DNA of 22,320 nt. Source: a virus. The position numbers and the translations under genes are program-made. The DNA lies in the IMG/VR virus record IMGVR_UViG_3300032323_000440, positions 1-22,320 of that record. The stretch is one strand, 5' to 3'. Numbering within the stretch: the first letter of the stretch is position 1; every line of letters starts with the position of its first letter. Under the pieces are notes generated by a model. The model ran no database searches and had not been told where the DNA came from. It saw nothing but the letters and a program-made list of their open reading frames with translations. Of the stretch, positions 1,080 to 13,340 are shown in pieces.

Positions 1080-1117
1080 TAAAAAAAAAGGGGCAACCAC
1101 TTTTGTGGAAACCCCTT
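1080..1117 (-). terminator. Rho-independent terminator after the winged-helix gene
   Basis: On the minus strand, AAGGGG-TTT-CCAC, an AAAA loop, GTGG-TTG-CCCCTT is followed directly by a run of nine to ten T. The stem has two paired blocks (GGGG/CCCC and CCAC/GTGG) around a small internal loop. It begins 14 bases after the stop codon of the winged-helix gene and ends just before the Shine-Dalgarno of the glycosyltransferase gene. Confidence 0.85.
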
Positions 1118-1130
1118 GTATTAAATCAGA

Positions 1131-1397
1131 TTAAACTGATTGAACACGAACGCCATTAGCACGGCATTGTGCTTTGAAAGACTTGCTTGGTGTACCTAAG
1201 CGATATACAGTCTGCACTTCACCAGCGATGTTTTTCTTGTTACCGTAGATTGCATAACCTTCTTGGCGCAACTCAGAGATGCGAGCAGAAACATTGGTGA
1301 TACCAAAGCGGCGTTGAGCTTGTTTGGTTGTGAATGTGTTGTAACCTTCTGTTTTTGTCAAAGCGGCCAACATCTTTTGTTTTGCTGATAATTTCAT
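1131..1397 (-). CDS. Small winged-helix DNA-binding protein
   Basis: An 88-residue basic protein. Residues about 19-48 (from YNTFTTKQAQRRFG through VSARISELRQEGY) form a helix-turn-helix: a first helix that selects a rule-like QAQRRFG turn, then a recognition helix ARISELR, then a wing beginning AIYGNKK and ending VYRLG. This pattern is typical of the small phage HTH proteins that I place in the Pfam HTH_55-like group. The start at 1397 is preferred over the ATG at 1409 because GGAG lies 7 bases upstream of it and inside the first codons of the longer form. The gene has its own near-consensus sigma70 promoter, a dyad over the -35 box and its own terminator, so it forms a single-gene unit. The role is inferred: an early regulator, possibly of itself. 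Confidence 0.75.
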   Translation of the reverse strand: MKLSAKQKMLAALTKTEGYNTFTTKQAQRRFGITNVSARISELRQEGYAIYGNKKNIAGEVQTVYRLGTPSKSFKAQCRANGVRVQSV

Positions 1398-1428
1398 GTA
1401 AAACTCCATATTTTAGTTAATAATAAAT

Positions 1429-1450
1429 CTCGTCAGACATCTTCAACGAG
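1429..1450 (-). promoter_or_regulatory. Stem-loop at the 5' end of the winged-helix transcript
   Basis: CTCGT (1450-1446) and ACGAG (1433-1429) on the minus strand form a perfect 5-bp stem with a 12-base loop. The predicted transcription start is about 1451, so the stem would sit at the very 5' end of the mRNA. Such 5' stems can protect phage mRNAs, or the dyad could be a DNA site near +1. Which of these applies is not decidable here. Confidence 0.4.
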
Positions 1451-1457
1451 TGAACAC

Positions 1458-1486
1458 ATTGTAACATTATGTAGTGTGTGTGTCAA
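1458..1486 (-). promoter_or_regulatory. Sigma70-like promoter for the winged-helix gene
   Basis: On the minus strand TTGACA (1486-1481, perfect -35) is followed after exactly 17 bases by TACAAT (1463-1458, one mismatch to TATAAT). The predicted start is about 1451, leaving about 53 bases of leader before the ATG at 1397. This is the best host-type promoter in the window that points with the genes. It lies right after the stop of the DruA-like gene. Confidence 0.8.
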
Positions 1487-1506
1487 GTATATTTGCGGTA
1501 TACTTG
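1484..1506. promoter_or_regulatory. Operator-like inverted repeat overlapping the -35 box
   Basis: A perfect 8-bp inverted repeat, CAAGTATA (1484-1491) and TATACTTG (1499-1506), is separated by 7 bases. One arm overlaps the -35 hexamer at 1481-1486. No T-run follows, so it is not a terminator of the gene ending at 1508. The arm spacing suits a dimeric helix-turn-helix protein bound to one face of the DNA. The winged-helix protein made from this promoter is the obvious but unproven candidate ligand. Confidence 0.5.
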
Positions 1507-1507
1507 T

Positions 1508-2773
1508 TTATCTGCCAACTTGTGGCAAATACTTGAACTTGGTTTCTTCCCAAGACAAGTATATTAGGTCATCATAGAATAAAGAATCATATGAAACAGT
1601 ATTCTTCTTCTGTAATTGCCTAATTCGACCCTTAGCATACTTGGTTTTCCAAATATTGGCAAGGGTTTCTTCACTGGTATCAAACGACTTTACCAGATCA
1701 GAATCGGTAATCTCCTTACGGAGAAATTCAAAGGTATTATTATAAAGAGAACTAAAATAGATACCACGTTGATGTTCGGTGCGAATCAATTCTTTTGGTA
1801 TTTGCAGTTTAGAATATGCAAAGTTTAAAGAACGATTTTTATGGTCACGCTTAAGTGGAAGACCTTGTGTATTTTTGGCTTCCCACCATTCAAAGTATTT
1901 GCGAGTATGATTTTCTTTAATCCAATCAAACACTAATTTTTTAGTTGACCTCGATGGTTCGAAAGCCACAGAACCAGAAGAAAAACCCATAGCGTTCCAA
2001 TGATCAAGTCCATCATACTGCGAAAGCCCTCCGGCTTTTGTTTTTCCGTATAATGACGTTGTAGTAACGCCAACAAGAGTGTCTCCATATTGTCTTTTCC
2101 AATCTGCCTGAACTGTATCTGATAAACACATCAATGCCAATAACTTACCACCCATGTAATTAAAACCTAGTGGTTGTAACGGAACGATGGTGGATCCAAT
2201 TGCAGTATGATTAATCATGTGTTGCTGTGTCTTAACATCTCTCGACCATCCGATGGCGTTATCTCTTGGAGTCAAGTCTAGAAAGTCTGAACTAATACAA
2301 ATAACACCAAGATACTTACCAGTAACTTCATCTGTTAAAACATAAAATAGATTACGACCAATATTTGAATTGTTCTTCATCGTGGAAGAAAATGTTCTGA
2401 TAGCGTTCCAACGAGCAGCATCTTCACCATTAGATAATACCATAACTGGTTTCAGTTTTTCATAATCATCAGGAGATTCTGGCACCCAAAAGTTTTTTCT
2501 AACTTCTTTAATGAGTTTATCTTGCTCTGGATCAACCATTTGTAACTCTGTGCCAAATACAGTGCTGGCTTCAAAGACAGGATATCTTTCTTTCACTTCA
2601 CACCATTTTTGATATAAAGTATATTCACGAACATCCATTTGCGAAGCATAAGTCAAGTCCTTAATTAGGACTTCCTTCATGTTTGCTTCATCAATGTGTT
2701 GAAATGAATTGACAGGATTTTTCTCTTGCCAATCATTCCATTGTTTTTCTACATACTCAATCGGTGTTGCCAT
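1508..2773 (-). CDS. DUF4338/DruA-like protein
   Basis: A 421-residue protein. Its central part (about residues 140-270) follows the pattern I remember for DUF4338, the family of DruA from the Druantia anti-phage system: a YLGVICISSDFLDL strand, then RDNAIGWS, a LILP-like TIVPLQPLGFNYMGGKLLAL, ADWKRQYGDTLVGVTTTS, and finally a DHWNAMGFSSG segment. The corresponding family features are GxxxFS, RDxxIGW, N-SKxL, DWxxxYG-xPVLxETFV and ANWxxxGxTxG. Several of these are changed (for example no ETF), so the protein is diverged. The family has no settled biochemistry that I can name with certainty; a nucleic-acid role is plausible. The ATG at 2773 overlaps the deformylase stop by one base (TAATG), so it is translated from the same mRNA as gp46 and the deformylase. 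The N-terminal 130 and C-terminal 150 residues show no motif that I recognise. Confidence 0.5.
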   Translation of the reverse strand: MATPIEYVEKQWNDWQEKNPVNSFQHIDEANMKEVLIKDLTYASQMDVREYTLYQKWCEVKERYPVFEASTVFGTELQMVDPEQDKLIKEVRKNFWVPESPDDYEKLKPVMVLSNGEDAARWNAIRTFSSTMKNNSNIGRNLFYVLTDEVTGKYLGVICISSDFLDLTPRDNAIGWSRDVKTQQHMINHTAIGSTIVPLQPLGFNYMGGKLLALMCLSDTVQADWKRQYGDTLVGVTTTSLYGKTKAGGLSQYDGLDHWNAMGFSSGSVAFEPSRSTKKLVFDWIKENHTRKYFEWWEAKNTQGLPLKRDHKNRSLNFAYSKLQIPKELIRTEHQRGIYFSSLYNNTFEFLRKEITDSDLVKSFDTSEETLANIWKTKYAKGRIRQLQKKNTVSYDSLFYDDLIYLSWEETKFKYLPQVGR

Positions 2774-3378: not shown

Positions 3379-5090
3379 TTTGCAATCCTACTAAAGTTAT
3401 TATGTTTCTCAAATTTAATAATCGACCTGAATTTATCAAATAACTGGTCACCTTTGTGTGAGATAACAAATACATTGGTATCTGTTCCCATCTCATGAAT
3501 CAATTTCAAAAATTCTTCTGTGCCAACACCATCAAGAGAAGAATCAAATACCTCATCAAGAATTAATAGGTTGGTATTTGTAGAGTTCTTCAATTTGGCA
3601 ACTTGTCGCCATGTAAACAATAGAGCCAAGTCAATACGCATCTTCTCACCTTCAGAAAAGTTGGCATATGAGAACTCATCACGGTGCCTAGACTTAATTG
3701 TTTCTTCAAACGATTCATTGATGTTAAAGTTTACAAAGAAGTCCATGGCAGTCAAATACTTATTAATTAACTTATTCATGATAGGTAAGTATTGACGAAT
3801 GATTTTGGTTTTGATGCCAGTATCTTTCAACAATGATCCTGCAAACTCATAGTATTGTTTCTCTGTGGCCAGTTCTTCTTGTTTTTTAATTAATACACCA
3901 AGTTCTTCTTTGAGTTCTTTTAACTTGGCATTTTCATCTTCAAGACTATCTTTGTGGTTGGTAAGTTCTTCTACTTCTCTTTGAAGTTTTGTAACGAACT
4001 TATTAATGGCAGATATTGTTGAGTTGTGTTTCACCACCTCGTTGTTATGTGCCGTAATGTGTTTAAGTCCGTGTTGTATTTCTTCGATTCGTTTATTTGT
4101 TGCCGTAATTTGAGTAGAGATGTCCGTTAAGGCTGTATTGACTTCCGATTTAGTGTTATTGAGAACAGAAACTTGGTCGGTTCGAAAAGATTCTTCAATA
4201 CTTTGCTTACAGGTTGGACAGTCTGAGTGTTCTTCATAAAAGGTTACCTCTTTATCAATCTTCTTAATGCGAGATTCGAGCTTAGACTCTAGTTGAATCA
4301 ACTTGGCACTTTTCTTTTGAACTGCCATTTGGTCGGCAATTTTGCTCTGCAACACGGCAATGTGTTTTTGAATTAACTCAACATCTCTTTCTAGTGTAAA
4401 GATTTGATCAACCGAATCGGCAATCTCTTTACGCTTCTTAGCAATTTCTTCATCAGAACGACTTTTGTGTTCTTCAATACTCTGTTTCTGAAAGTTGATT
4501 CTTTCTGAAGAAATATCCATCTCATATTTGTTTTTGATTGAGATATCTTTGATTGATGACATCTTCTCTTTAACAATTCCATTCATAGAGGAGAAAATGC
4601 CAATATCTAACAAATCTTCAATAATTAATCTGCGGTCAGCCGGAGATAATTGCATGAAAGGAACAAATGATGCTGAACCAAGAATAACCACTTGTGTAAA
4701 TGATTTGTAGTTAATCTTGAGAATAAACTTCTCCAAAAACTCTTGATAATCTTTTGCCTTGGCATCTTGGTCAAGTAGTTTGTTCTCAAGATAAACCTCA
4801 AACACATTAGGCTTAATACCACGAATTACTTTATAATGTTTTTTGCCAATAGAAAATTCAATCTCTACAACACAATCAGACTGGTTAATAGAGTTTAATA
4901 ATTGCGGTTTGTTTATCTTACGAAATGGTTTACCAAAAAGACCAAAACACAATGCATCAAGAATGGTGGATTTACCTGCACCATTGTTACCAATGATTAA
5001 TGTGTTTGGTGATTTTTGAAAGTTGATTTCAGTAAAAGTGGCACCGGTCGATAAGAAGTTTTTCCAACGGACTTTTTGAAATGTAATCAT
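3375..5090 (-). CDS. 46: gp46, SbcC/Rad50-type recombination nuclease ATPase subunit
   Basis: A 571-residue SMC-like ATPase, close to T4 gp46 (560). Walker A is GNNGAGKST (34-42). Two long coiled-coil arms flank a Rad50-type zinc hook, CPTC (C291 and C294). The ABC signature is NFSEGEKMRIDLAL, Walker B is LLILDEVFD (D512, E513) and the H-loop is VISHK (H545). With gp47 it forms the nuclease that processes DNA ends for recombination-dependent replication and host DNA breakdown. The start overlaps the stop of the dehydrogenase-like gene (ATGA) and the end overlaps the deformylase start (ATGA). The separation from gene 47 by a metabolic gene is unusual. Confidence 0.95.
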   Translation of the reverse strand: MITFQKVRWKNFLSTGATFTEINFQKSPNTLIIGNNGAGKSTILDALCFGLFGKPFRKINKPQLLNSINQSDCVVEIEFSIGKKHYKVIRGIKPNVFEVYLENKLLDQDAKAKDYQEFLEKFILKINYKSFTQVVILGSASFVPFMQLSPADRRLIIEDLLDIGIFSSMNGIVKEKMSSIKDISIKNKYEMDISSERINFQKQSIEEHKSRSDEEIAKKRKEIADSVDQIFTLERDVELIQKHIAVLQSKIADQMAVQKKSAKLIQLESKLESRIKKIDKEVTFYEEHSDCPTCKQSIEESFRTDQVSVLNNTKSEVNTALTDISTQITATNKRIEEIQHGLKHITAHNNEVVKHNSTISAINKFVTKLQREVEELTNHKDSLEDENAKLKELKEELGVLIKKQEELATEKQYYEFAGSLLKDTGIKTKIIRQYLPIMNKLINKYLTAMDFFVNFNINESFEETIKSRHRDEFSYANFSEGEKMRIDLALLFTWRQVAKLKNSTNTNLLILDEVFDSSLDGVGTEEFLKLIHEMGTDTNVFVISHKGDQLFDKFRSIIKFEKHNNFSRIAK

Positions 5091-5869
5091 CTAATTAATT
5101 TATTTTTTTCAATAGCAGAATTTAGAACGGATAATAGTATATCATTTTCTTTTGCGTATGTCAATAAAGCATTGGTATCTTTTGGAAAACAAGCACCACC
5201 AAAACCAAAGTGATTGTCCGGGCCAGGAACTTGTGTGTGTGAATTACCGATTCTTTTATCTATCAATACCAATTTTTCAACTTTGTTATAATCGATATTT
5301 GTTTTGTCGCAAAGAATTTTTAATTCATTCATAAAAACAACTTTTGTGGCAAGAAATGAATTAATTGTATATTTCATCATCGAAGCTTCTTCAATTGTTG
5401 CTGAATAAAAAACAGCACTAGGAAAAACATTCTGCAATACTGTTTTTGCCAATTCAATATATGTTTTATTATTTCCACCTATAACATGAAATCGTGACGA
5501 CAAATAATCATTAATGGCAGTTTTGGCAACCAAAAATTCTGGAACATAAACCAAATTTTCCATAAATTCATTTGCTGTGGTGTAAAAAGACGGTGGTGCT
5601 GTTACCTTACTAATAACAACACCTTTATAATTAACAGATTTTAGTTTATATAATACGTCTGATAAAATACTAGTATCACAAGAACCATCTTCTTTTTGTG
5701 GAGAAGGTACACAAACATATACTGCATCCACATCTTTAATTGATTTGTAACTACCAGTGACATTTGATAAGTTTGGATCAATAATATAATTAGAGTCAAT
5801 ACCTCGATATGAAGCGTTTACAGCTTTACCCACAAAACCAAAACCAATAATTGCAACGTTGTAATTCAT
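5087..5869 (-). CDS. UDP-glucose/GDP-mannose dehydrogenase-like protein, short form
   Basis: A 260-residue protein. The N-terminal Rossmann motif is GFGFVGKA (9-16), followed by VCVPSP and the conserved YVPEFL stretch. The central domain carries the family's catalytic cysteine in GFGGACFPKDTNAL (C227). Normal UDP-glucose 6-dehydrogenases are about 390-450 residues and end in a third domain that completes the UDP-sugar site; here the protein stops about 30 residues after the catalytic motif, so that domain is absent. The frame is clean and both gene junctions are tight (3 bases after gp47, ATGA into gp46), so this looks like a kept short form, not decay. It would oxidise a nucleotide sugar with NAD+, perhaps feeding the glycosyltransferases at the window ends. 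Substrate is not known. Similar short dehydrogenases occur in other large phages. Confidence 0.8.
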   Translation of the reverse strand: MNYNVAIIGFGFVGKAVNASYRGIDSNYIIDPNLSNVTGSYKSIKDVDAVYVCVPSPQKEDGSCDTSILSDVLYKLKSVNYKGVVISKVTAPPSFYTTANEFMENLVYVPEFLVAKTAINDYLSSRFHVIGGNNKTYIELAKTVLQNVFPSAVFYSATIEEASMMKYTINSFLATKVVFMNELKILCDKTNIDYNKVEKLVLIDKRIGNSHTQVPGPDNHFGFGGACFPKDTNALLTYAKENDILLSVLNSAIEKNKLIR

Positions 5870-7696: not shown

Positions 7697-7717
7697 AAAA
7701 TATACCATAAAAAGTTG

Positions 7718-7746
7718 TTGACAAAGGGCTTGCCATCGTGTATAGT
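7718..7746 (+). promoter_or_regulatory. Near-consensus sigma70 promoter directed against all genes
   Basis: On the plus strand TTGACA (7718-7723) is followed after exactly 17 bases by TATAGT (7741-7746). It lies in the 81-base gap between the 122-residue gene and gene 55. A transcript would begin near 7753 and run antisense through the end of the 122-residue gene towards uvsW. No plus-strand gene follows. It is a strong match to consensus, but chance cannot be excluded in AT-rich DNA. Confidence 0.5.
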
Positions 7747-7764
7747 TCTCGGTGTCCCCCTTTG
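7722..7764. repeat. Inverted repeat CAAAGGG...CCCTTTG around the antisense promoter
   Basis: A perfect 7-bp inverted repeat, CAAAGGG (7722-7728) and CCCTTTG (7758-7764), with a 29-base loop. It begins inside the -35 box of the plus-strand promoter and encloses its -10 box. No T-run follows on the minus strand, so it is not a normal terminator. Confidence 0.45.
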
Positions 7765-13332: not shown

Positions 13333-13340
13333 TATTTATA
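13333..13340 (-). promoter_or_regulatory. T4-type late promoter for genes 22-23
   Basis: A perfect TATAAATA on the minus strand, in the 37-base gap between genes 21 and 22. The expected start is about 13327, followed by AAGGAGA (13319-13313) and the ATG at 13304. T4 also starts late transcripts in this part of its head gene cluster. Confidence 0.85.

What the first reader, a model, noticed from the sequence alone, without database searches (positions are those of the whole stretch)
1080..1506. Self-contained winged-helix regulator unit with a possible auto-operator
Within about 430 bases there is an inverted repeat over a perfect -35 box, a near-consensus sigma70 promoter with 17-base spacing, a stem at the transcript 5' end, a good Shine-Dalgarno, an 88-residue winged-helix gene, and a strong terminator. 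Everything else nearby is packed in overlapping operons. This looks like an early, independently expressed regulatory cassette that could have moved as a unit.
Basis: partly seen in the sequence, partly recalled or inferred. Interest (0 to 1): 0.62.

Follow-up and report, generated by a model that had tools for sequence, protein, structure and literature searches.

The report
Phage regulator gene with regulon box
In this T4-like phage a small DNA-binding protein gene has its own promoter with a symmetric control site, and half of that site recurs at a fixed spacing ahead of the promoters of replication, tRNA and other genes in its relatives, so it looks like the key site of a small undescribed phage control network rather than a movable cassette.

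Summary
The observed anatomy is real: a perfect 8+8 bp dyad (1484-1506) over the -35 of an 11/12 sigma70 promoter, a 5' stem, a Shine-Dalgarno, an 88-aa HTH_39 winged-helix gene and a strong terminator. In 139 distinct relatives the promoter is almost always kept, and the box (C)AAGTATACCRC in about three quarters. The dyad's left half is a directional box. In 706 kb of relatives it lies 7-9 bp upstream of the -35 of a limited set of strong promoters: the HTH gene, the gp43 polymerase operon, the gp45 clamp, a tRNA cluster leader, and a promoter pointing the wrong way beside gp55, with a copy in this window (7698-7746, +). Only the HTH gene's own promoter carries the inverted second half (102 of 127 distinct boxed promoters; 0 of 53 elsewhere). 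This fits a regulator of several promoters with an auto-operator. That the HTH protein binds the box is inferred, not shown. The moved-as-a-unit idea is not supported, because DruA-HTH-GT synteny is the rule. Identical HTH proteins occur with and without their own box. Related phage groups reportedly lack MotA and AsiA, so the box is a candidate for their missing prereplicative control.

The parts
1484..1506 (.). Dyad CAAGTATA-N7-TATACTTG over the -35; candidate (auto)operator with two inverted half-sites
   Evidence: in relatives
1495..1505 (-). Box AAGTATACCGC, ending 8 bp before the -35; shared with other promoters of related phages
1481..1486 (-). -35 hexamer TTGACA
1458..1463 (-). -10 hexamer TACAAT, extended (TG), 17-bp spacer
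1464..1475 (-). Conserved spacer TANATAAT-like stretch (TACATAATG here), seen at most HTH promoters
1429..1450 (-). Stem-loop at the 5' end of the predicted transcript (start about 1451)
1404..1407 (-). Shine-Dalgarno GGAG
   Evidence: read directly
1131..1397 (-). HTH_39 winged-helix protein, 88 aa
1081..1117 (-). Intrinsic terminator
1510..1530 (-). Second hairpin/palindrome over the DruA 3' end (ATTTGCCA-CAAGT-TGGCAGAT), with synonymous-site covariation
7698..7708 (+). Second copy of the box in the window, AAATATACCAT, 9 bp before a -35
7718..7746 (+). Promoter TTGACA-17-TATAGT pointing against all genes, between the gp55-like gene and the 122-aa gene; has counterparts with the box in relatives

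Best explanation
The unit is an independently promoted, vertically kept core gene for a small winged-helix (HTH_39) transcription factor of a T4-like phage. Its promoter is a strong host-sigma70 promoter with an upstream box, (C)AAGTATACCRC, 7-9 bp before the -35. The box is a cis-element shared by several prereplicative promoters of the phage group. Most likely the HTH protein binds the box, touches RNA polymerase at single-box promoters (gp43 operon, gp45, tRNA leader, the promoter beside gp55), and uses the inverted second half-site that only its own promoter has, lying over the -35, to limit its own synthesis. Shown by sequence: the box, its fixed spacing, its targets, and the extra arm at the HTH promoter. 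Inferred: that this protein is the binder. More weakly inferred: the sign of regulation (activation at single boxes, autorepression at the dyad).
For: The composite element scanned over all viral contigs lies ahead of the HTH gene and/or after DruA in 122 of 127 hits. PWM scan of 245 promoters in 706 kb: 24 carry the box against a mean of 2.0 (maximum 5) with shuffled matrices, 20 of 24 at 7-9 bp from the -35; strong hits pile up at gaps 7-9 and nowhere else within 125 bp apart from five at gap 118. Targets: HTH 134/171 promoters, gp43 leader 5/5, basic protein/tRNA leader 6/7, gp45 12/35, Hsp20 1/26; among 757 other promoters 35, 34 of them at gap 7-9. gp43 and gp45 confirmed by PHROGs. Both arms only at HTH: at least 6/8 pairs in 102 of 127, 0 of 53 at other targets; arms agree better than permuted pairs (5.68 against 5.43 of 8, 0 of 5000 permutations). 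The strongest boxes are at the HTH promoter (median 16.4; other classes 10.4, 12.1 and 14.5). Recognition-helix positions are invariant in 60 homologues, and the box core is strongly conserved too.
Against: No binding or expression data. The HTH gene lost or changed its own box at least 13 times on supported branches of the tree, and identical proteins occur with and without it. Five isolates, four with distant HTH_39 homologues, lack the element. The link between protein and box rests on location and site strength. A strict spacing to the -35 could also mean an intrinsic promoter element. The near-consensus -35 argues against a need for activation. Permutation tests ignore kinship.
Confidence: 0.5

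Rival explanations
1. The box is real but is bound by another factor (another phage protein or a host regulator); the HTH gene is only one of its targets.
For: The box sits ahead of several unrelated genes; the HTH promoter can lose it while other promoters of the same phage keep it (G015, G018, G030).
Against: The strongest copies, and the only two-armed ones, are at the gene of a DNA-binding protein. No other candidate binder was identified here.
Confidence: 0.25
2. The box is an intrinsic RNA-polymerase element (an UP-like or alpha-CTD contact), not an operator.
For: Strict 7-9 bp spacing to the -35 in nearly all boxed promoters.
Against: It is a specific TACC-containing sequence rather than an A/T tract, is absent from the great majority of other strong promoters of the same phages, and is often lost without loss of the promoter.
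Confidence: 0.13
3. The dyad acts as an RNA hairpin in a DruA-to-HTH read-through transcript, paired with the hairpin at 1510-1530.
For: Both fold well (tandem z -4.8; dyad alone z -6.1); the neighbouring DruA-end hairpin covaries at synonymous sites; G-U pairs far exceed A-C pairs in the eight arm pairs of the dyad.
Against: The box is kept when the sequence between DruA and the promoter is replaced (L005, L029, L035), its loop side is among the most conserved parts, other targets have the box without a hairpin, and U-U outnumbers G-U at one arm position.
Confidence: 0.08
4. The unit is a mobile regulatory cassette.
For: Own promoter and terminator; the element stays with the HTH gene when the upstream neighbour changes.
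Against: Nearly all 80 homologous loci keep the GT gene downstream and most keep DruA upstream; no copy in another context was found.
Confidence: 0.03

Closest known systems
T4 middle promoters: MotA and the MotA box (PMC2988021)
   Same: A phage-specific box at a fixed place in sigma70-type promoters of prereplicative genes, with a small phage DNA-binding protein as the known (T4) or proposed (here) reader.
   Different: The MotA box is (a/t)(a/t)(a/t)TGCTTtA, centred at -30, and replaces the -35. This box is AAGTATACCRC, centred near -49, with a near-consensus -35 kept. No MotCF domain was found in 10 contigs, but the control did not ring.
Pfam PF14090 HTH_39 / PHROG 4973
   Same: The protein matches both families and folds as a winged helix.
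   Different: No function or operator found for the family: no solved relative by sequence, and the literature search gave no paper for PF14090 and only single mentions of HTH_39 in two papers.
Autoregulated phage repressors and activators with palindromic operators (general class, from own knowledge)
   Same: Inverted half-sites over the -35 of the regulator's own promoter.
   Different: Here one half also serves alone, at strict spacing, at other promoters.

Membership tests
HTH_39 (PF14090) winged-helix protein | Score above Pfam's gathering cut-off | tested here: met
   32.8 bits against 21.3, E 6.4e-8
HTH_39 (PF14090) winged-helix protein | Winged-helix fold | tested here: met
   AlphaFold2 pLDDT 90.5, H-E-H-H-E-E-H; matches phage HTH-domain models at E 3e-5
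T4 MotA/AsiA middle-promoter system | MotA-box sequence at -30 in place of the -35 | tested here: not met
   TTGACA is retained and the box differs in sequence and position
T4 MotA/AsiA middle-promoter system | MotA gene present | tested here: inconclusive
   MotCF absent in 10 contigs, but no control genome rang and contigs may be partial
gp55 late promoter | TATAAATA-type -10 | tested here: not met
   No TATAAATA at the HTH promoter; the two exact matches in the window are at 13333 and 15866
Host sigma70-type early promoter | Near-consensus -35 and -10 with 16-18 bp | tested here: met
   11/12 here; 127 of 139 distinct relatives at least 11/12
Autoregulated regulator | The protein binds its own promoter | not testable with these tools
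   Needs a gel shift or footprint
Mobile cassette | Unit found in different genomic contexts | tested here: not met
   Conserved synteny in 80 loci

The most novel reading that the evidence does not exclude
HTH_39 is the prereplicative (middle-type) transcription regulator of a large group of T4-like phages that seem to lack MotA/AsiA. It acts through a new box, AAGTATACCRC, at about -49 of promoters that keep their -35, covers polymerase gp43, clamp gp45, tRNAs and a promoter opposing gp55, and limits itself through a second half-site found only at its own promoter.
Probability: 0.35. Interest if true: 0.75.

Novelty: new variant of a known kind. Interest (0 to 1): 0.55.

Why it matters
[quoted passage not shown] T4-like cyanophages are said to lack T4-like middle promoters (PMC5780444). 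How such phages time replication genes is open. A defined box, a target list and a candidate 88-aa regulator make the question directly testable.

Tried and rejected
Late promoter in the spacer: TANATAAT does not match the TATAAATA-type late sites. Operator private to the gene: the exact dyad-like pattern is found almost only at the HTH locus, but the half-site is shared, so this was dropped. Co-variation of HTH residues with an operator base: only weak signals, not in the recognition helix core and not corrected for kinship. RNA hairpin as the main explanation: kept as a rival. Hsp20 as a general target: only 1 of 26 promoters carries the box. PDB fold search: only weak winged-helix matches, none at E 0.001 or better. 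MotA search: no informative control. Transcript data for this group: none found in the literature searched.

Full report
What is there. The window is a 22.3-kb IMG/VR contig of a T4-like phage. The genes in order on the minus strand include terminase, tail, portal, prohead, gp23, UvsW, a gp55-like sigma, gp47, a UDP-glucose dehydrogenase, gp46, peptide deformylase, a DruA-domain protein, the HTH gene and a GT-like gene (several structural names are read from the translations). The gp23 protein is closest to Methylophilales phage Melnitz at 66%.

Conservation of the unit. 80 homologous loci from viral contigs nearly always keep the GT gene after HTH, and most keep DruA before it. Among 139 distinct upstream regions from three HTH-based searches, 127 have a promoter of at least 11/12, and 103 have at least 7/9 of AAGTATACC directly upstream. 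The logo shows a directional motif, (C)AAGTATACCRCA, then CTTGACA, then a conserved spacer TANATAAT, then TATRAT, then a 5' stem. The stem is present in all 114 distinct leaders, with compensating arms.

Is the dyad more than a half-site plus a -35? At HTH promoters with the box, 78 of 103 have at least 6 of 8 arm pairs, against 3 of 80 other early promoters. Left and right arms agree better than when re-paired at random (5.68 against 5.43, 0 of 5000; kinship not controlled). A compensated form CAAGTGT...ACACTTG occurs (L220, L240, L370). In L370 it is kept although the -35 reads TTGCAA. In about a quarter of distinct relatives the box is missing. In one common form the DruA stop lies 4-5 bp from the -35 instead of 21, and the same HTH protein occurs in both states. 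The box is therefore dispensable for keeping the gene.

The box is shared. A scan of all viral contigs for the composite element hit the HTH/DruA locus in 122 of 127 cases. Looser searches of 24-25 long relatives found the box also ahead of a tRNA-like leader and tRNA cluster with a 54-71 aa basic protein, ahead of the gp43 operon, ahead of a promoter opposing the gp55 region, and once ahead of Hsp20. Reversed-pattern controls gave 0 and 2. A PWM scan of 706 kb around 245 promoters gave 24 boxed promoters against a mean of 2.0 for shuffled matrices. Hits of score 10 or more sit at gaps 7, 8 and 9 (4, 11, 4) and otherwise at single positions, except five at gap 118. Classes: HTH 134/171, gp43 leader 5/5, basic protein 6/7, gp45 12/35, Hsp20 1/26, others 35/757, of which many are the promoter opposing gp55 and the tRNA leader. 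The window holds its own second copy at 7698-7746 (+). Only the HTH promoter has both arms.

Reading. A box at strict spacing with several targets among prereplicative genes suggests a trans-acting regulator that touches polymerase. A second inverted half over the -35, only at the regulator gene's own promoter, suggests self-limitation. The HTH_39 protein is the obvious candidate because its promoter has the strongest and most complete sites. This last step is inference: no binding data exist, five isolates with at best distant homologues lack the element, and another binder or an intrinsic polymerase element are open rivals. The sign of regulation is a guess.

Compared with what is known. The nearest analogue is the T4 MotA box system, from which it differs in sequence, position and retention of the -35 (PMC2988021). 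Related phage groups are reported to lack MotA and AsiA (PMC7029224; PMC5780444); the test here for MotCF was negative but without a working control.

Limits. Contigs may be partial. Promoters and starts are predicted, not mapped. Counts of sites include related phages even after removing identical sequences. The matrix was built from HTH sites, so the higher scores at HTH promoters are partly by construction. In one target class (the tRNA leader behind a SprT-like gene) the box overlaps coding sequence, but in others (L136, L499, L500) it does not. Target classes other than HTH, gp43, gp45 and tRNA were assigned by short motifs.

Noticed in passing
window 7698-7753 (+): A promoter with the same upstream box points against all genes, between the gp55-like gene and a 122-aa gene; its counterpart, often with a doubled TTGAC...CTTGAC, recurs in many relatives and would make RNA antisense to the 122-aa gene.
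   Followed up: partly
window 1510-1530 (-): Palindrome over the last codons of the DruA gene; third positions of its Leu and Gly codons covary as G-C, A-T or T-A in 145 distinct relatives (G/A against C/not-C, Fisher p 7e-21, kinship not controlled), suggesting an RNA hairpin.
   Followed up: partly
window 1508-2773 (-): A DruA-domain (PF14236) protein sits in the replication gene cluster of a T4-like phage and is conserved in most relatives; its role is unknown.
   Followed up: no
L441, L438, L442, L443, L436, L437: Composite terminator-promoters: the -35 TTGACA lies in the loop of an intrinsic terminator, the T-run is the promoter spacer, and TATAAT follows. L072/L073 carry a 13-bp palindrome around the -35 of the HTH promoter.
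   Followed up: no
L446, L447, L448, L239, L216: A conserved RNA of about 70 nt (GCGGTG...CCACCGCTCCA) just after the boxed promoter, tRNA-like at its ends but not called by ARAGORN or Rfam.
   Followed up: no
L469-L490: Hsp20 gene promoters of relatives often have a late-type TATAAATA lying between the -35 and -10 of an early-type promoter.
   Followed up: no
window 5087-5869 (-): A UDP-glucose dehydrogenase-like gene lies between gp47 and gp46.
   Followed up: no
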